A DNA stretch of 64,000 bases from a virus. A program made the translations under genes and the position numbers. The stretch lies in IMG/VR virus record IMGVR_UViG_3300024999_000040, positions 84,717 to 148,716 of that record. The stretch is one strand, 5' to 3'. Each line of letters opens with the position of its first letter. The first letter of the stretch is position 1. The notes below the pieces were generated by a model. That model saw nothing but the letters and a program-made list of their open reading frames with translations. It searched no databases and was not told the DNA's origin. Of this stretch, positions 24,934 to 48,905 are shown one piece after another.

Positions 24934-25893
24934 TTATTCTCCTTTAACAATTTTAAACATTTCATCAATTGTTCCTAATAACTCATATCTATTTAAAGAA
25001 GTGGAATTCTTAGCAAAATCTTCTTTTACCAAATCTATATACATTGTAAATTGACCATCATCTCCCATATAAAATTCATTCCATTCTTCGGTTGTGAATA
25101 GCCTTCTTATATTCAATTGTTCTAATGCTAGATTATCAAAACTAACCACCTCGAAAGAAGCAATGATTTTATGCATATTATCATAAATAGATTTCTGATT
25201 TTTTACTATATTATCTTCATTATTTCCTTTGTACTCATGACCTCTTCTTAAATCTTTATATCCTAATATTAAAAGTTTATATCCTTTATTCGATAATTTC
25301 ATAATACTATCAAAAGAATGAATTCCATTAATAACATGAATTACTGTATTCTTCTTATATTCATTTACTTCTCCATCATCATATATATCTAAAGTAAATA
25401 TTCTTTCTAATTCTTCGGCATCTCCATTATAAGATATACCAACTCCATATACTTCTTTATGCTTCATCCAATGAAAAATATCATAAACATTTTGAGATTT
25501 AAAATAATTTTCTTTACCATTAAAGTTCATAAATTCACCAGTTAGATGATTTTGATTAACAGTTATATTTGCTATAATCCCCTTACTCTTACACCATTTT
25601 AAGAACATATATAAATCTTTATTCTCAAAAATATTCCCTCCACCTATAGCAAGTTCCGTTCCTGCTCTTAGTGAGTATAAAAATTCATGATTAAAATTTG
25701 CATTTTTACCATCTGGAGTAGAATTTTCATGACAAAAAGCACAGCCCATATCACACTTATCAGAAATTTTAATATCAATATTTTCAGGAAAAGAAGATAT
25801 GAATTTATCCTCGTTGTTTTCCCTTATTTTTGTTCCATCATCATAAAGTTTTACAGAATAATTTCCATTTATGTATTCATGAAGTAAATTCAT
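24934..25893 (-). CDS. Radical SAM enzyme, substrate unknown
   Basis: 319 residues. The 4Fe-4S motif CDMGCAFCHENSTPDGK (C-x3-C-x2-C) is at residues 48-64, preceded by the first barrel strand NIDIKISDKC; the later ELAIGGGN matches the SAM-binding GGE-type strand. The C-terminus has no extra Cys-rich SPASM cluster. It stands beside two paralogous genes with an N-terminal FETNSSS motif, so a protein- or peptide-modifying role is possible, but that is inference from neighbourhood only. Confidence 0.82.
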   Translation of the reverse strand: MNLLHEYINGNYSVKLYDDGTKIRENNEDKFISSFPENIDIKISDKCDMGCAFCHENSTPDGKNANFNHEFLYSLRAGTELAIGGGNIFENKDLYMFLKWCKSKGIIANITVNQNHLTGEFMNFNGKENYFKSQNVYDIFHWMKHKEVYGVGISYNGDAEELERIFTLDIYDDGEVNEYKKNTVIHVINGIHSFDSIMKLSNKGYKLLILGYKDLRRGHEYKGNNEDNIVKNQKSIYDNMHKIIASFEVVSFDNLALEQLNIRRLFTTEEWNEFYMGDDGQFTMYIDLVKEDFAKNSTSLNRYELLGTIDEMFKIVKGE

Positions 25894-40264: not shown

Positions 40265-41749
40265 TTAATTACTCATTAGTTTATTTCTTATCTCTGCCAA
40301 AGTTTCATCTCTTATCAATTTACCATCAACAAAAATGTCTTCGAGGATATCTACATCTTTTAACTTCTCTCTTTCAGCTCTGCCTAATCCATCAATATAC
40401 TTAATATTCCCATTTTCATTTACTACGCATACAAGTCCTGTTTGTGATTTCTTGAAGTTTGCTTTATCTGTAACAGGGTCTTTAAATAAGTTCTTTTCTT
40501 TTCCACCAAATACTCCAAAGGTTGACTTCAAAGCAAATCCAAAAGTATCTCTTGTATTATATTGGTAAGTGAAGGAACCAATGCCATAAACCATATTGGT
40601 TGAAGCAAATCCTTTATCCATTAATCTCTTACAAATTTCATCACATCTTTCAAGTGTAATTGCATCTCCATAAATACAACCAATATGTGAATCCAATTGT
40701 TTATAACCTTTATCAGTAATAGTTCCACCAAAAATATCCCAAAGAATCTCTATAACGCCTTTCTGTTCATTTTCATCGGCAGACTCAGAATCACCACAGA
40801 TTATTTTTACAGGATCACCACTATCAGGGCGAATAACAATTCTACCATCTCTTGCCAAAATTTCAGGCTTCAATGTTTTAATAACATTATTCAAAACTCC
40901 CCATAAATCCCATGTATCAGATACTATAGAGGCGAATCCAGAAGGATAAACTTCTGTGATAATTCTTCTATAAGATTCAAGTTCATTCTGTCCGTATGCA
41001 CACATTACCGAGTGTTCCGTAGCTGGTATAGAAGTTCCTACTAATTCCTTTTCTATATTGGCATTGTAAAACTCTTCTAAATACAATATTGCAGGAATAG
41101 TATCTGTTCCAGAAAATGAAAGTAAATGTCCTGCTCCACTTGCTTTAGCAGCATCTAAAGCACTCATACCCCTCATAGAGAAATCATGACCCTGAAATTG
41201 AACTCCACCTAAATCTCCACCTGTTTTTTCAGCATACATATTAAGTAACTGTCTGTATTCATATGCAATAGTAGCACTTGTTGTAGGCTGCCATAAGATA
41301 CATGACATAAGTGTTTCAATATAATTTGTCAACCAAAAAAATTCAGGAATGGTATTTTCAATTGTAAACATAGGAACTCTAATTGGTACTCTTGTTCCTT
41401 CTTTAACAGCTCTGATTTTAAAAGGTAAATATCCAAGTTTATGTAATGCTTCAATATGAGATGCATCTGGATTATCCTTACCAAGAGTATACTTGATCAC
41501 TCTTTTATATTCATCTATAACTTCTTCAGTTGTTCTTGAAAAGAAATTCTCATTGAAATATTTAATAAGATACTCCTTGATAAATGCCTGAAATCCAAAA
41601 GCAACAACCTTGTCAACACCTTTAATTCTTGTCATACGAGGTGTCCATGTGCTAAAAATCATTTCTGTATTTTCTGGATACTGTTCTCTATGTGATACCT
41701 TGTAAAAGTCACATAACAATGTTGCAGGATAAATGTAATTTTTGTTCAT
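40265..41749 (-). CDS. nadV: Nicotinamide phosphoribosyltransferase (NadV/Nampt)
   Basis: 494 residues, the full Nampt length. Characteristic segments: KVSHREQYPENTEMIFSTWTPR at the start, QFQGHDFSMRGM near residue 184, SFSGTDTIPA near 210, the catalytic His in TSIPATEHSVM near 243, IVSDTWDLW, and RPDSGDPVKI near 307. It joins nicotinamide to PRPP to give NMN. It is last in an operon with a PRPP synthetase, so donor and enzyme are supplied together. Phage Nampt is known to take part in NAD restoration against NAD-depleting defences. Confidence 0.95.
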   Translation of the reverse strand: MNKNYIYPATLLCDFYKVSHREQYPENTEMIFSTWTPRMTRIKGVDKVVAFGFQAFIKEYLIKYFNENFFSRTTEEVIDEYKRVIKYTLGKDNPDASHIEALHKLGYLPFKIRAVKEGTRVPIRVPMFTIENTIPEFFWLTNYIETLMSCILWQPTTSATIAYEYRQLLNMYAEKTGGDLGGVQFQGHDFSMRGMSALDAAKASGAGHLLSFSGTDTIPAILYLEEFYNANIEKELVGTSIPATEHSVMCAYGQNELESYRRIITEVYPSGFASIVSDTWDLWGVLNNVIKTLKPEILARDGRIVIRPDSGDPVKIICGDSESADENEQKGVIEILWDIFGGTITDKGYKQLDSHIGCIYGDAITLERCDEICKRLMDKGFASTNMVYGIGSFTYQYNTRDTFGFALKSTFGVFGGKEKNLFKDPVTDKANFKKSQTGLVCVVNENGNIKYIDGLGRAEREKLKDVDILEDIFVDGKLIRDETLAEIRNKLMSN

Positions 41750-41750
41750 A

Positions 41751-42170
41751 TTATATATTCTCCTTTTTAATATTTATATTATTTAAATAATTTGACACTT
41801 CTTCTAATGATTTAAAATATAACCCACCGTTTCTTTTTACTAAACATCCTACTGCATCTAAATGTTTTAAATCTTGATGAGACATAGCCCATTCGCCATT
41901 AGGTAATTTTTCGTTTATAATACAAACTATAGTTTTATCAGGTCTTTTGTTACTATCATCTACAACTTCAGCTATTGAATATGTACTAAAAACTCTAGTT
42001 AATGTGTATAAAACAAAATCGCAAATTTTTCTTTGTTTAATCTCTTCTACTTGACATTCTGGAGTCCAATTAGATACCACTGGATTAAAATAATCTATAT
42101 TTAGCTTTGGTATTAATTTATCTCTCCACTTACTATTAGCACATGTGCCACCTAAAAATACTCTACTCAT
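41751..42170 (-). CDS. Nucleoside 2-deoxyribosyltransferase-like protein
   Basis: 139 residues. The start SRVFLGGTCANSKWRDKLIP and the segment CDFVLYTLTRVFSTYSIAEVVDDSNKRPDKTIVC match the second nucleoside-deoxyribosyltransferase family (Nuc_deoxyri_tr2), with the catalytic Glu in SIAEVVDDS. Members act on N-glycosidic bonds of nucleosides or nucleotides. Between nadV and HAD genes it may act on nicotinamide or purine nucleotides; substrate unknown. Start overlaps the HAD gene end. Confidence 0.72.
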   Translation of the reverse strand: MSRVFLGGTCANSKWRDKLIPKLNIDYFNPVVSNWTPECQVEEIKQRKICDFVLYTLTRVFSTYSIAEVVDDSNKRPDKTIVCIINEKLPNGEWAMSHQDLKHLDAVGCLVKRNGGLYFKSLEEVSNYLNNINIKKENI

Positions 42171-42579
42171 TATTTATATTCTCTCTTTCTATTTGTTCTA
42201 CAGCATTTAATAAACATTCATATGAAGATTGAAGTCCTGATCTATCATCAAGCATTATATTGTAATAAATTTTTCTACCTGTAAACTTTATAAAGTCAAA
42301 ATTATTATTTATTCTATCAAACGGAATATTATTACTATATAAATAATCTTTGATTTTTCCATATTCATCTTCTCCACAACATGTGAATACTACAAAATAC
42401 GCTCCAGCCTTATCGTATCTTTGTAGTAGTGAGATTACATCAGTATAAGTTCTGCCTTTCTTCCAGAAATCAAATACAGTATCATCGAAATCATAAGCAA
42501 TAATAATCTTACCGTATTTCTTCCATTCCTCTATAAGTCTATTAATTACATTTTCATTATTTAAATAATAATCCATCAT
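42163..42579 (-). CDS. HAD-superfamily phosphatase
   Basis: 138 residues. HAD motif I is IIAYDFDDTVFDFW near residue 24 (DxDxT), motif II FVVFTCCGED near residue 60, and motif IV IYYNIMLDDRSG near residue 105. The short form without a large cap suggests a nucleotidase or small phosphatase. It overlaps the PRPP-synthetase gene end by an ATGATG junction. Within this operon a nucleotide substrate is likely. Confidence 0.8.
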   Translation of the reverse strand: MMDYYLNNENVINRLIEEWKKYGKIIIAYDFDDTVFDFWKKGRTYTDVISLLQRYDKAGAYFVVFTCCGEDEYGKIKDYLYSNNIPFDRINNNFDFIKFTGRKIYYNIMLDDRSGLQSSYECLLNAVEQIERENINNE

Positions 42580-43406
42580 CCAATAACTCCTGTTCCTTGA
42601 ATAGGATATATCTTTATTCTATCATTCAATTCTTCAGTAATAATACTATTTGTAGTATATACTTTGTTAATTAAATCGGTTTTAAATATATCACCTTTGT
42701 AAATTGAATCTTCAGCATGACCAATTACAAGATATACTTCTCCAGCTCCAAGTTCTATTAACTTTCTAGCTCCTAACATGAATGTACCACCATAAGAAGA
42801 TAAATCATCTATCATTATTACTTTAAAACCTTTTGACTTAACTTCTCCAAGGACTTCAAGGCTTGTAATTTTGCCTGTTTGAAAATCTCTATGTTTAAAT
42901 CCTACTAGAGAATTTTTAACTTTAATCATTTTACTATACCTTTTCTCACTACCAGCATCAGGGAAGTAAATATAATCCTCATCCTCATTAAAATTCATTC
43001 TAACCTTAACATCAGATAGAATATTAACAGATGGAAAACTGATCTCACAATTATTGAGTAATGCAGGTGTAACATCAGAATGAGGTTCAATTACCGTTAC
43101 TTTTTCAAAATTAAGTTTATTGATAAAGTCTGCTACATATTTTAATGTGAAAGCTGAACCACCTTCAGACCTATCCATTCTACTATATGGCATATAATAT
43201 ATTACCAATTCAGATTGCTTTTTAAGTATGTCCAAATAGCGTTTAACAAACATAAGTTTAATTAAATTACTATCATTCTCATATTTAAGAGAAACGACAT
43301 TCATTCCTCCTGTTTCTGCATTATCTCTTATCTGTTTTTCATTCATCTTTGTTTCTCCATTTGGGAAAGTTTCAAATCCTAATGGAATTGAGTTTAAAAA
43401 TATCAT
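42576..43406 (-). CDS. prs: Ribose-phosphate pyrophosphokinase (PRPP synthetase)
   Basis: 276 residues. Prs motifs: ETFPNGETKM near the start, IYYMPYSRMDRSEGGSAFTLKYVADFIN near residue 70, EPHSDVTPALL near 106, FPDAGSEKRY near 150, and the PRPP-binding loop MIDDLSSYGGTFMLGA near 200 (family DDxxxTGxT). It is shorter than the bacterial enzyme (~315) and has Ser-Ser-Tyr-Gly-Gly-Thr in the loop. It makes PRPP for nadV. It is first in the operon, behind a TTAACTAAG promoter. Confidence 0.9.
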   Translation of the reverse strand: MIFLNSIPLGFETFPNGETKMNEKQIRDNAETGGMNVVSLKYENDSNLIKLMFVKRYLDILKKQSELVIYYMPYSRMDRSEGGSAFTLKYVADFINKLNFEKVTVIEPHSDVTPALLNNCEISFPSVNILSDVKVRMNFNEDEDYIYFPDAGSEKRYSKMIKVKNSLVGFKHRDFQTGKITSLEVLGEVKSKGFKVIMIDDLSSYGGTFMLGARKLIELGAGEVYLVIGHAEDSIYKGDIFKTDLINKVYTTNSIITEELNDRIKIYPIQGTGVIG

Positions 43407-43433
43407 ATGTAACCTCCATAAATTTATACTATT

Positions 43434-43462
43434 ATTATACTTACTTAGTTAAGATTTGTCAA
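43434..43462 (-). promoter_or_regulatory. Promoter of NAD-salvage operon, with TTAACTAAG spacer motif
   Basis: TTGACA-17-TATAAT on the minus strand, perfect hexamers, TTAACTAAG ending 4 nt before the -10. It overlaps the last codons of the radical-SAM gene, so the NAD genes have their own start. Same spacer motif as at 22011, 27750 and 34370. Confidence 0.88.
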
Positions 43463-45377
43463 GTACATTTTTATATTCCTTTAACCATTTTTGAACATAG
43501 AATAATTGACCACATCCACCACCAATATCATCCTGTCCTGCTGGATTAAATATTCTGCAATCATATCCTTTATCAATAAAATACTGTTGAAATCCTTGAA
43601 TAGTATCTAGATTTCTAAATCCTGCCTCTTTCATGGTTTCATCAGCACTACATACAACACTGAAAGTAAAGCAATAAACCAAAGGACTAAAATTCATATA
43701 TAGTTTTAAGAAATCATCATGTCTATTATTTGTACCATCTACACAATAATTTAAATAAGGTTTCCTTCCAGTTTCTTTCCACCATAATAGTCCTGCATCT
43801 CTTAACTTATATAAACTCATTTTATTTTTAAATGGTATTAATTCATTTCTTTCTGCATCACACGATTTATGTATTGAAAATTGAAGCCCAACTTTAGAAA
43901 TCTCTTTTGATAAATTTATAATTCTTCTGAATACGTCATCATCATCTACTCCAATAGTTGATAATAATAAATCAGCATAAGGATATAAAATATGTAGACT
44001 TCTAATTGCTCTTTCCACTTCTTTAAAATTAAGCATAGGTTCACCCATACTCATAAACATAATTTGAAATTTACTGCAATTTTCAACGTTAATATTCATG
44101 TCACTTTTTATATGAAGAATTTGACTCAGAATTTCTTCGTTGGATAAATTTCTAATAAATTTCTTACCTGTACCACAATTATGAACTAATATATTTTCTG
44201 CAATATATGTATTTTTAGTAGTTGTTAAATTATACACTGTTCCAACAAAATTTCTCTCTTCAATTTTTACAATTTCGTCAAAATCCACTAAAGATTTTAC
44301 CTTTATATTTTGTATAAAATCTTTTTTAGGATGAATTGGAGTACAGATTTGTAAAAATTTAATTCTTGGCATAGTACTATCTAATACATATGTATTTCCT
44401 TCTTTATTATATTTTTTTATTTTAAAAGTGTAACCCAATTCTTTAATATATTTACCAAATTCATTTAAATATATTAAATTATTATTACATACTCTAACTG
44501 ATTTATTATTTTTAAATGAATATCCTTCTGCATCCCAAAAACCCGCCAAATAACCTTTTTTATAATTATTATTATCTGCATATTTATGAATAATACTATT
44601 AAAAACTTTAATTCCATTATCTCCAAATTCAAATCTATAATTTAACATATGTTTTTCAATTTTTGATTTCTGTTCCCATATGTCACTACATTGTATATGA
44701 AATTCAGAACATAAATTTTTAACAAAATTAATAACTTCTTTATTTGATTGAGATATAGACCACCTAAAGCAATTTTTATTTTTTCTTTGACTATAAACAC
44801 CATCTCCGTGGACAAATCCTACTAACCATCCTGCTTTCCAAAACAAGTCATTTTTATTATCAACTTGAACATTATTACAAGTTAAAACATTATCGCCTAT
44901 GTGAATATTTTCTATATTAACAAACTTGTTTCTATATAATTTTTTATTATTTATAGCTATTGGATGACCTACAGTAGCTTCAATTGACTTTCCACTTTTT
45001 GTAGTTAATTTTATTAATTTCCCATTATATTCTCTTGATGATACATTTAGTATTTTTGAAGAAGTTGAATTTAATGAAGAATAATCTGAAAATCCATTAG
45101 ACGCATTAGTTAATATATTTCCAATTATATTATCGCCTATTTTAACATCTACAATTTTCTTATAGGAAAAATCATCCATCAATATTTTAGTTTCTTCTGG
45201 TAAACAAAATGTGCAGCCTACTGGACATCCAGATTGTACAGAACAACATATAACCGTACGTTTTTCAAATGAATCATATTTATACAATACTGTTTCAGCT
45301 ATCGCATTATTAAATTCAAATATGTATTTCCACACATTACCTTCACTACTATCTAATCTTTTTACATTCTTAAACAT
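43449..45377 (-). CDS. RlmN/Cfr-like radical SAM methyltransferase interrupted by an intein
   Basis: 642 residues including a 343-residue intein. The joined extein (about 299 residues) has CSVQSGCPVGCTF-CGTG, matching the RlmN cluster motif C-x3-C-x2-C; Cys44 lies seven residues before the first cluster Cys, at the place of RlmN Cys118. GGGCGQLF near the C-terminus matches the methyl-carrying Cys355 (ACGQL). SMGEPMLN is the SAM-binding GEP strand. RlmN/Cfr proteins methylate A2503 of 23S rRNA and some tRNAs. The N-terminal RNA-binding domain (about 60 residues) of host RlmN is absent, so the target may differ. Confidence 0.87.
   Translation of the reverse strand: MFKNVKRLDSSEGNVWKYIFEFNNAIAETVLYKYDSFEKRTVICCSVQSGCPVGCTFCLPEETKILMDDFSYKKIVDVKIGDNIIGNILTNASNGFSDYSSLNSTSSKILNVSSREYNGKLIKLTTKSGKSIEATVGHPIAINNKKLYRNKFVNIENIHIGDNVLTCNNVQVDNKNDLFWKAGWLVGFVHGDGVYSQRKNKNCFRWSISQSNKEVINFVKNLCSEFHIQCSDIWEQKSKIEKHMLNYRFEFGDNGIKVFNSIIHKYADNNNYKKGYLAGFWDAEGYSFKNNKSVRVCNNNLIYLNEFGKYIKELGYTFKIKKYNKEGNTYVLDSTMPRIKFLQICTPIHPKKDFIQNIKVKSLVDFDEIVKIEERNFVGTVYNLTTTKNTYIAENILVHNCGTGKKFIRNLSNEEILSQILHIKSDMNINVENCSKFQIMFMSMGEPMLNFKEVERAIRSLHILYPYADLLLSTIGVDDDDVFRRIINLSKEISKVGLQFSIHKSCDAERNELIPFKNKMSLYKLRDAGLLWWKETGRKPYLNYCVDGTNNRHDDFLKLYMNFSPLVYCFTFSVVCSADETMKEAGFRNLDTIQGFQQYFIDKGYDCRIFNPAGQDDIGGGCGQLFYVQKWLKEYKNVLDKS
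44178..45206 (-). mobile_element. Intein with LAGLIDADG homing endonuclease
   Basis: Splicing blocks: Cys1 with CLPEETKILM (block A), TVGHPIAI (block B), and VYNLTTTKNTYIAENILVHN followed by Cys+1 (blocks F/G, His-Asn end). Two LAGLIDADG motifs sit between: GWLVGFVHGDG near residue 183 and YLAGFWDAEG near residue 276. Cys+1 is the third cysteine of the host enzyme's iron-sulfur motif, so the enzyme cannot assemble its cluster correctly until splicing occurs. Confidence 0.92.
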
Positions 45378-47199: not shown

Positions 47200-48432
47200 C
47201 TAACCTACCTTTCTCCTCTCAGTTAATAAACTTTTTCTTCTCTCAATTAATTTGAAAGATTTACAATTAACACTACCTTTGTTTACTTTAGTACCATCTA
47301 AAGTTCTAATATCAAAGAAACCAGTGTTTCTTCTTCCAAAGATATAATATAGCTTCCCTTGGTATTGAATCTTATCAAATAATCTAAACCCTTTTACCTC
47401 AAATTGCGCTTGATTTAACTTCTTAATTCCACATTTTAATATATTCGCTTTATGGATCTGTCTGTTGTGGCATCTTACTTTCTTATAAAAGTAATAATAG
47501 TTTAATCTTTTAACTAATGGATTGCCACTTATACATAAAGCATCAATCCTATGTTCTTTTGGTAATTTATTCTCAATTCTTGTATTCTTAGTTATATAGC
47601 CATAAGTTAATGTTACATTAGGATATATTTCTTTTAACTTATTATAAAATGCCCAACGCATTATTCCCATAAAAGCCGCATCTTTGAATGATTTACCACG
47701 CTTTAAATTTAATTTCAATTTGCCATTATGATAATCTTCATGACATTCTTCACATAAGGTAATCAGATTACTTGGTGCATCTCCACCAGTTTTTCTTGAT
47801 TCAATGTGATGTACATTTAATATTTTATTCTTACATCCTTTTTTGCCTTGACATTTATGCCCATCTCTAAATAGTACATACTCACGTACATTCCAGAAAT
47901 CTAATTGATTGCCTTGTTGATATTCTTTTCCTTGTATTTCTGGATTATTTATTTTCTGTATATCAAAACTTGCTACTTCAACTATTATTTTAGATATAGG
48001 TAATATCTTATAAATCTTATCAACAATACTTAAATGTGTTTGTATTTTGTTTTCAATACTAGGTGCCAGCCATCCTTTGTTTTTACTACCAACACGATTT
48101 AAAAATCTAGGTTCCCTATATCTTAATCTATTTCTTCTAGTACGTCTATTTTGTCTGCGTGTAGAAAGCAAATCCACAATATCATTTCTTAATTCAACTT
48201 CTGATGAATATAGTTCTTGTTTTTCAGTAGTAGCAGATAAGCCTATTACTTTGCTTCCTGCGTCAATACCTAATGTAATATCTTGAACTTGATTCTCACA
48301 TTCAAAAATTAGTTGAATAGTGAATGGTTCTTTTTTAACAACTCTTGCCAGACTGTCTCTGAGCAATTTTCTTGCTTTTGCTTCTTTGCAAGGCATTATA
48401 GGTTTACCTTGAATGTTTAATACATATACCAT
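47200..48432 (-). CDS. iscB: IscB RNA-guided nuclease
   Basis: 410 residues. N-terminal PLMP-type domain (KPIMPCKEAKARKLLRDSLA), RuvC-I with GIDAGSKVIG near residue 55, the arginine-rich bridge helix (RRQNRRTRRNRLRYREPRF), RuvC-II KIIVEVASFD near 147, an HNH domain VLFRDGHKCQ ... LNVHHIESRKTGGDAPSN near 185-225, and RuvC-III HRIDALCIS near 285, then a C-terminal domain (EVKGFRLFDKIQYQGKLYYIFGRR). All catalytic residues seem intact. IscB cuts DNA matched by its omega-RNA guide and is the ancestor of Cas9. The start follows ACGGAGG at a longer than usual distance. Confidence 0.93.
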   Translation of the reverse strand: MVYVLNIQGKPIMPCKEAKARKLLRDSLARVVKKEPFTIQLIFECENQVQDITLGIDAGSKVIGLSATTEKQELYSSEVELRNDIVDLLSTRRQNRRTRRNRLRYREPRFLNRVGSKNKGWLAPSIENKIQTHLSIVDKIYKILPISKIIVEVASFDIQKINNPEIQGKEYQQGNQLDFWNVREYVLFRDGHKCQGKKGCKNKILNVHHIESRKTGGDAPSNLITLCEECHEDYHNGKLKLNLKRGKSFKDAAFMGIMRWAFYNKLKEIYPNVTLTYGYITKNTRIENKLPKEHRIDALCISGNPLVKRLNYYYFYKKVRCHNRQIHKANILKCGIKKLNQAQFEVKGFRLFDKIQYQGKLYYIFGRRNTGFFDIRTLDGTKVNKGSVNCKSFKLIERRKSLLTERRKVG

Positions 48433-48659
48433 TTTGTTTATAAAACCTCCGTATATTAGAGTTAATATCCTTAGACAATGTTGTAAAGGCTTGTTGTATA
48501 TAGCACACCGTTCCTACCTCTTAGAACTTTTAATACTATACGATAGAGCCAAGAACTAGGATAAATATTCTTGGGTATCATGACCTAAACAACATAGTTA
48601 ATTAAAACTTAGTCTAGTCAATCAGGCTTTTACAAGCCCCGACCCTTTAGGGTCGCGGG
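48433..48659 (-). ncRNA. Omega-RNA of the IscB element
   Basis: The 227 bases immediately 5' of iscB have no ORF and fold by eye into successive hairpins: CGACCC/GGGTCG, GGCTT/AAGCC, CCAAGAA/TTCTTGG, GTTC/GAAC within GTATAG/CTATAT. The location and length fit the known omega-RNA, whose 5' guide comes from the sequence flanking the element. The guide would then lie at 48660-48680, within the end of the neighbouring gene. Confidence 0.75.
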
Positions 48660-48905
48660 TTATTGACCGTCTTTTTCCTTTGCATAATTATTTTTTAGCC
48701 AATCCTTGATATACCTTACTGTTTCTTCAAATTCAGTGAAGTACATTTTATGATCTATGGATGAATATATGTTTACTCCACTTCTTATAATATTAAAATG
48801 ATATATTTTAGTTACTGTTAACATACGTACATAAATCTTCAAATCATAATATTTAGCAACCCAAAGAGGATAAATTTTGTTTCGTTTTGCTCGTATAAAC
48901 TGCAT
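48660..48905 (-). CDS. Hypothetical protein ending at the IscB element
   Basis: 81 residues, basic and aromatic (RAKRNKIYPLWVAKYYDLKIYVRML). Its stop codon abuts the left hairpin of the IscB element, so its original C-terminus may have been changed by the insertion. No family recognised. Confidence 0.55.
   Translation of the reverse strand: MQFIRAKRNKIYPLWVAKYYDLKIYVRMLTVTKIYHFNIIRSGVNIYSSIDHKMYFTEFEETVRYIKDWLKNNYAKEKDGQ

What the first reader, a model, noticed from the sequence alone, without database searches (positions are those of the whole stretch)
43449..45377. Homing intein placed exactly at the iron-sulfur cysteine of an RlmN-like radical SAM enzyme
The intein starts at the position of the third cluster cysteine and its Cys+1 becomes that ligand after splicing. 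The enzyme therefore cannot build its 4Fe-4S cluster before splicing. Inteins at metal-binding or catalytic motifs can act as redox- or metal-sensitive switches, since the splicing nucleophile is the same cysteine.
Basis: partly seen in the sequence, partly recalled or inferred. Interest (0 to 1): 0.7.

Follow-up and report, generated by a model that had tools for sequence, protein, structure and literature searches.

The report
Intein inside a phage radical-SAM enzyme
A phage gene for an iron-sulfur (radical SAM) enzyme is interrupted, exactly at one of the cysteines that will hold its metal cluster, by a self-splicing mobile protein element; the reading is sound, but the same placement is already known in other radical-SAM enzymes and is more likely a selfish element at a conserved site than a proven switch.

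Summary
The 642-codon ORF at 43449-45377 (-) is a 299-residue RlmN-like radical SAM enzyme interrupted by a 343-residue class 1 intein (44178-45206) with a LAGLIDADG homing endonuclease. In-silico splicing restores CX3CX2C exactly; all 137 relatives in which both halves align are uninterrupted there, so the junction is not in doubt. Cys+1 (Cys401) becomes the third cluster cysteine.

The precursor still reads CX3CX2C, because the intein's own Cys1 stands in for the third cysteine, so 'no cluster before splicing' is likely but not forced. Cys1 and Cys+1 are different residues. Redox control is untested. It has a precedent (P. abyssi MoaA intein, Cys-3/Cys1 disulfide) and Cys-3 is present here, but CX3CX2C supplies Cys-3 to any intein at this site.

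Inteins at the third radical SAM cysteine already exist: NCBIfam NF038136, and a second phage found here (L057) with a mini-intein. This one is the only intein carrier seen in its extein family.

Side finding: the extein gene heads an operon-like run with NAD-salvage genes, and its family lies next to such genes more often than chance.

Verdict: real, new member of a known kind.

The parts
43449..45377 (-). Whole gene: precursor of an RlmN-like radical SAM enzyme with an intein (642 aa)
   Evidence: TIGR00048, Intein_splicing, LAGLIDADG_3
45207..45377 (-). N-extein, residues 1-57, ends ...CC-SVQSG-CPVGCTF; holds C44 (counterpart of E. coli RlmN C118 by position) and cluster cysteines C51 and C55
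44178..45206 (-). Intein, 343 aa, Cys58 (C1) to Asn400, class 1 by sequence
45204..45227 (-). CPVGCTFC: CX3CX2C as read in the precursor, the last Cys being intein Cys1; Cys55 is Cys-3
44964..44978 (-). Intein block B, ATVGH (TxxH)
44598..44840 (-). First LAGLIDADG repeat of the homing endonuclease (LVGFVHGDG at 44799-44825)
44391..44564 (-). Second LAGLIDADG repeat (LAGFWDAEG at 44523-44549)
44178..44237 (-). Intein blocks F and G, VYNLTTTKNTYIAENILVHN: penultimate His, terminal Asn; the usual block F Asp (VYDL) is Asn
43452..44177 (-). C-extein, begins with Cys401 (Cys+1 = third cluster cysteine after splicing), CGTGKKF; carries GGGCGQL (43503-43523), counterpart by position of RlmN C355
42576..43406 (-). 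Ribose-phosphate pyrophosphokinase-like gene, next in the operon-like run
40265..41749 (-). Nicotinamide phosphoribosyltransferase (NAMPT), last of the run

Best explanation
A mobile, LAGLIDADG-bearing class 1 intein has settled at one of the most constrained codons of a phage RlmN-like radical SAM gene. Cys1 attacks the Phe57-Cys58 bond, Cys401 (+1) takes over the N-extein by transesterification, Asn400 cyclises, and the joined enzyme recovers C51-C55-C58, into which the 4Fe-4S cluster is then loaded. The site is best explained by homing: the DNA target is conserved, the +1 Cys needed for splicing is guaranteed, and imprecise loss would destroy the enzyme. Shown: the sequence anatomy, the exact empty site in relatives, and the predicted RlmN/Cfr-type fold of the extein. 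Inferred: that splicing and homing are active. A Cys-3/Cys1 disulfide that pauses splicing under oxidation is possible as a by-product; an evolved regulatory role is not shown.
For: Intein and endonuclease domain hits; intact N- and C-terminal nucleophiles, TxxH, HN|C, and two LAGLIDADG motifs with acidic residues. Empty site in 137 of 137 loci and exact restoration of CPVGCTFCGTGKKF. Extein model matches RlmN and Cfr structures and the family profile matches RlmN/Cfr PDB chains. The 42 nt around the junction are 69% identical to relatives against 54% for the gene, within the top 7% of windows. The pattern scan of IMG/VR found no relative of the intein, and elsewhere only about 21-25% identity over long stretches: sporadic, as for a mobile element. 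Phage inteins generally sit in functional motifs (PMC5050341).
Against: No splicing or cleavage data. The block F Asp, which helps activate Cys1 (PMC10663303), is Asn here, so splicing might be slow. No intein-bearing relative at the same site in this extein family, so mobility is inferred from the domain, not from observed transfer. Codon usage and base composition do not mark the intein as recently foreign (intein GC 23%, extein 28.5%).
Confidence: 0.85

Rival explanations
1. The intein is a redox switch: under oxidation Cys55 (-3) and Cys58 (1) form a disulfide that blocks the first splicing step, holding back an oxygen-labile enzyme until conditions are reducing.
For: Same Cys-3/Cys1 spacing as the P. 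abyssi MoaA intein, where this was shown; the extein is an oxygen-sensitive type of enzyme (general knowledge of radical SAM enzymes).
Against: Cys-3 comes with the CX3CX2C motif and is present in family members without an intein. Only one family member carries the intein, so no conservation argues for a benefit. If the host is an obligate anaerobe, as some of the nearest cellular relatives suggest, the switch would mostly be 'on'.
Confidence: 0.2
2. The precursor binds iron or a cluster through C51, C55 and intein Cys1, so metal loading blocks splicing: an iron- or cluster-sensing intein.
For: The precursor keeps the complete CX3CX2C spacing.
Against: No direct evidence; the third ligand would sit in the intein active site, geometry unknown (most of the intein part of the model is below pLDDT 50).
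Confidence: 0.04
3. The intein is decaying: the Asn in block F leaves it slow or unable to splice, and the phage tolerates loss of the enzyme.
For: VYNL instead of VYDL; only one carrier known.
Against: All direct nucleophiles and both LAGLIDADG motifs are intact, there are no stops or frameshifts, and the conserved extein residues are kept.
Confidence: 0.1

Closest known systems
Pyrococcus abyssi MoaA intein (redox trap; Callahan et al. 2011, read through reviews PMC3922620 and PMC10663303)
   Same: Intein in a radical SAM enzyme with a Cys at -3 able to pair with Cys1
   Different: Archaeal host enzyme, tested in the laboratory; here a phage RlmN-like enzyme with no tests. Whether the MoaA site is the radical SAM motif or another CX2C of MoaA was not checked here.
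NCBIfam NF038136, intein-containing Rv2578c family radical SAM protein (actinobacteria)
   Same: Insertion at the third CX3CX2C cysteine: in intein-free Mycolicibacterium homologues one Cys codon aligns with both profile position 76 and 335, and window Cys58 falls on position 76
   Different: Different radical SAM family; cellular
Mini-intein in a phage PA0069/Rv2578c-like radical SAM protein, L057 (IMGVR_UViG_3300031746_000004)
   Same: CPVGCVFC|L...ENILVHN|C: same cysteine, related C-terminal intein block
   Different: No endonuclease domain found, block F Asp kept, another enzyme family
M. smegmatis DnaBi1 intein (PMC6195587)
   Same: +1 nucleophile is a metal-coordinating residue of the mature active site; oxidation of a catalytic Cys pauses splicing
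   Different: Class 3 intein, P-loop Ser, helicase
RlmN / Cfr 23S rRNA A2503 methyltransferases
   Same: Fold, CX3CX2C, both extra catalytic cysteines by position
   Different: N-terminal ~70 residues missing; scores far below the RlmN and Cfr cut-offs

Membership tests
Class 1 intein | Cys/Ser at position 1, TxxH block B, C-terminal HN followed by Cys/Ser/Thr | tested here: met
   Cys58, ATVGH, VHN|C; Intein_splicing above cut-off
Class 1 intein | Self-splicing activity | not testable with these tools
   needs expression
Class 1 intein | Block F Asp (usual, not strictly defining) | tested here: not met
   VYNL against VYDL in L057 and in the M. jannaschii KlbA intein. To my knowledge not universal among active inteins, so not used to exclude.
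LAGLIDADG homing endonuclease | Two LAGLIDADG motifs with acidic residues | tested here: met
   two LAGLIDADG_3 matches..VHGDG and ..WDAEG
RlmN (equivalog TIGR00048) | Score above the curated cut-off (290 bits) | tested here: not met
   114 bits after splicing
RlmN (equivalog TIGR00048) | N-terminal accessory domain | tested here: not met
   match begins at profile position 72
RlmN/Cfr-like radical SAM superfamily | CX3CX2C plus the two extra cysteines, RlmN-type barrel | tested here: met
   C44, C51, C55, C58, C279 invariant; best structural matches RlmN and Cfr
Redox-trapped intein (MoaA type) | Cys at -3 to Cys1 | tested here: met
   Cys55 and Cys58
Redox-trapped intein (MoaA type) | Disulfide that reversibly blocks splicing | not testable with these tools
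   bench test

The most novel reading that the evidence does not exclude
The intein really gates the enzyme by redox or iron state during infection, holding an oxygen-labile radical SAM enzyme of a phage NAD-salvage operon in an inactive precursor and releasing it when the cell is reduced and cluster assembly works.
Probability: 0.1. Interest if true: 0.65.

Novelty: new member of a known kind. Interest (0 to 1): 0.33.

Why it matters
It adds a phage RlmN-like enzyme to the small set of radical SAM proteins with an intein at the cluster motif. Window, L057 and NF038136 are inteins in more than one radical SAM enzyme family, which suggests that the third cysteine of CX3CX2C is a repeatedly used intein site, and that every such insertion automatically carries the Cys-3 needed for a redox trap. 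That makes the general question, switch or by-product, directly testable by comparing these inteins.

Tried and rejected
Scan for relatives of the intein in IMG/VR: none. DNA patterns for other inteins at the same cysteine: L057 real; L056, L058, L059, L157 (CPVGCxFCL or CL-G-T type patterns) and L060, L061 (HNCGTG pattern) are chance reading frames. Virus Rctr197k 'radical SAM' intein: the protein reads as a helicase-like protein, not a radical SAM enzyme, set aside. NF038136 in 201 genomes of one actinobacterial family: none over the cut-off; the listed matches are split at the intein site, as in intein-free copies. L017 at first looked like an interrupted homologue; only its C-terminal part matches, and no intein signature was seen in the sequence before it. 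Structure prediction of the precursor gave a good extein but no usable intein. Primary MoaA paper not held.

Full report
What was checked. The ORF 43449-45377 (-) is open for 642 codons. Pfam finds Intein_splicing (5e-12) and LAGLIDADG_3 (2e-12), and NCBIfam finds both RlmN (in two pieces) and intein_Nterm. The intein runs from Cys58 to Asn400, window 44178-45206; the next residue is Cys401. Removing it gives a 299-residue protein with ...VQSGCPVGCTF-CGTGKKFIRNL..., exactly the consensus of the family. The RlmN match becomes continuous and rises from 95.5 to 114.2 bits, and Radical_SAM passes its Pfam cut-off.

Empty sites. Relatives were collected from named phages, IMG/VR and bacterial genomes. 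In all 137 loci where both halves were found the reading runs straight through the site; one (L029) has a 24-nt microduplication of the motif just upstream. A few of these loci are overlapping records of one contig. A multiple alignment opens its gap between '-GC-x-F' and 'CGTG'.

The extein. It is an RlmN/Cfr-like radical SAM enzyme without the N-terminal accessory domain. The cluster cysteines C51, C55, C58 and the counterparts by position of RlmN C118 and C355 (C44, C279) are invariant in a 26-sequence alignment. A predicted model with a mostly well-resolved extein matches the Sphaerobacter radical SAM methyltransferase 6fz6, E. coli RlmN and Cfr best. It fails the RlmN and Cfr equivalog cut-offs, so its substrate is unknown.

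The intein. Cys1, TxxH, HN|C and two LAGLIDADG motifs are present. The block F Asp that helps activate Cys1 is replaced by Asn (VYNL), while L057 and the KlbA intein keep Asp. It is the only intein found in the 148,716-base virus record. No close relative of it was found.

Position and its meaning. The insertion is at the third CX3CX2C cysteine. Two facts temper this. First, seven cysteines are invariant in the family and three are cluster ligands; an intein that needs Cys+1 at a conserved site would land on a ligand in about three of seven cases. Second, inteins, phage inteins included, generally sit in functional motifs (PMC5050341), and a +1 residue that is a metal-coordinating residue of the mature protein is known from the DnaB P-loop (PMC6195587). 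The same radical SAM cysteine is the site in NCBIfam NF038136: in intein-free Mycolicibacterium homologues (GYRGCSHACRYC-FARP) one Cys codon aligns with both position 76 and position 335 of the intein-containing profile, and window Cys58 falls on position 76. A second phage (L057) has a mini-intein at the same cysteine of another radical SAM family. No NF038136 member with the intein was read here; that point rests on the profile.

Mechanism claims. The precursor keeps CX3CX2C through Cys1, so the statement that no cluster can form before splicing is likely but not forced. The ligand of the mature enzyme is Cys+1, the second nucleophile, not Cys1. Redox control by Cys-3/Cys1 has been shown for the P. 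abyssi MoaA intein and the spacing is the same here, but Cys-3 is part of the enzyme's own motif. No tool here can test it.

Context. The gene is followed on the same strand by a PRPP synthetase-like gene, a phrog_1238 protein, a nucleoside deoxyribosyltransferase-like gene and NAMPT, with overlaps or short gaps. Across 137 family loci, 20 have NAMPT, PRPP synthetase, NadD-NAD kinase or NadE in the fetched flanks (about 6 kb a side), and 27 have these or an NrtR-like NUDIX, NADAR or a putative macro-like protein (the macro-like one had no Pfam match). On 23 contigs of 100 kb or more with both genes, NAMPT lies within 2.2 kb of the radical SAM gene in 8, against 0.84 expected from uniform placement (related phages are not independent, the 2.2 kb limit was chosen after seeing the distances, and one eligible contig, L135, was not included; at 5 kb P is 1e-4). 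A survey of viral NAD systems does not contain the words 'radical' or 'RlmN' (PMC9503650).

Verdict. A correct and well-placed observation; a new member of a known kind; regulation unproven.

Noticed in passing
window 40265-45377 (-) and loci L003, L025, L027, L033, L036, L108, L116, L131, L154: The phage RlmN-like radical SAM family is a neighbour of NAD-salvage and ADP-ribose genes (NAMPT, PRPP synthetase, NadD-NAD kinase, NadE, NrtR, NADAR) more often than chance; a role in NAD or RNA metabolism during infection is a lead.
   Followed up: partly
window 47200-48432 (-) and 48461-48667 (-): IscB RNA-guided endonuclease with its HEARO (omega) RNA, about 1.8 kb upstream of the intein gene.
   Followed up: no
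window 24934-25893 (-): A second gene with an uninterrupted CX3CX2C (CDMGCAFC), matching a phage Fe-S oxidoreductase family.
   Followed up: no
L057:1107-2885 (-): Phage PA0069/Rv2578c-like radical SAM protein with a mini-intein at the third cluster cysteine.
   Followed up: partly
L029:4478-5362: Radical SAM relative with a 24-nt tandem microduplication giving GCPVGCPVGCPVGCAFC at the cluster motif.
   Followed up: no
window 42163-42579 (-): Matched by PHROGs to a family annotated phosphoheptose isomerase (phrog_1238); its IIIAYDFDDTVFDFW motif reads more like a HAD-type phosphatase.
   Followed up: no
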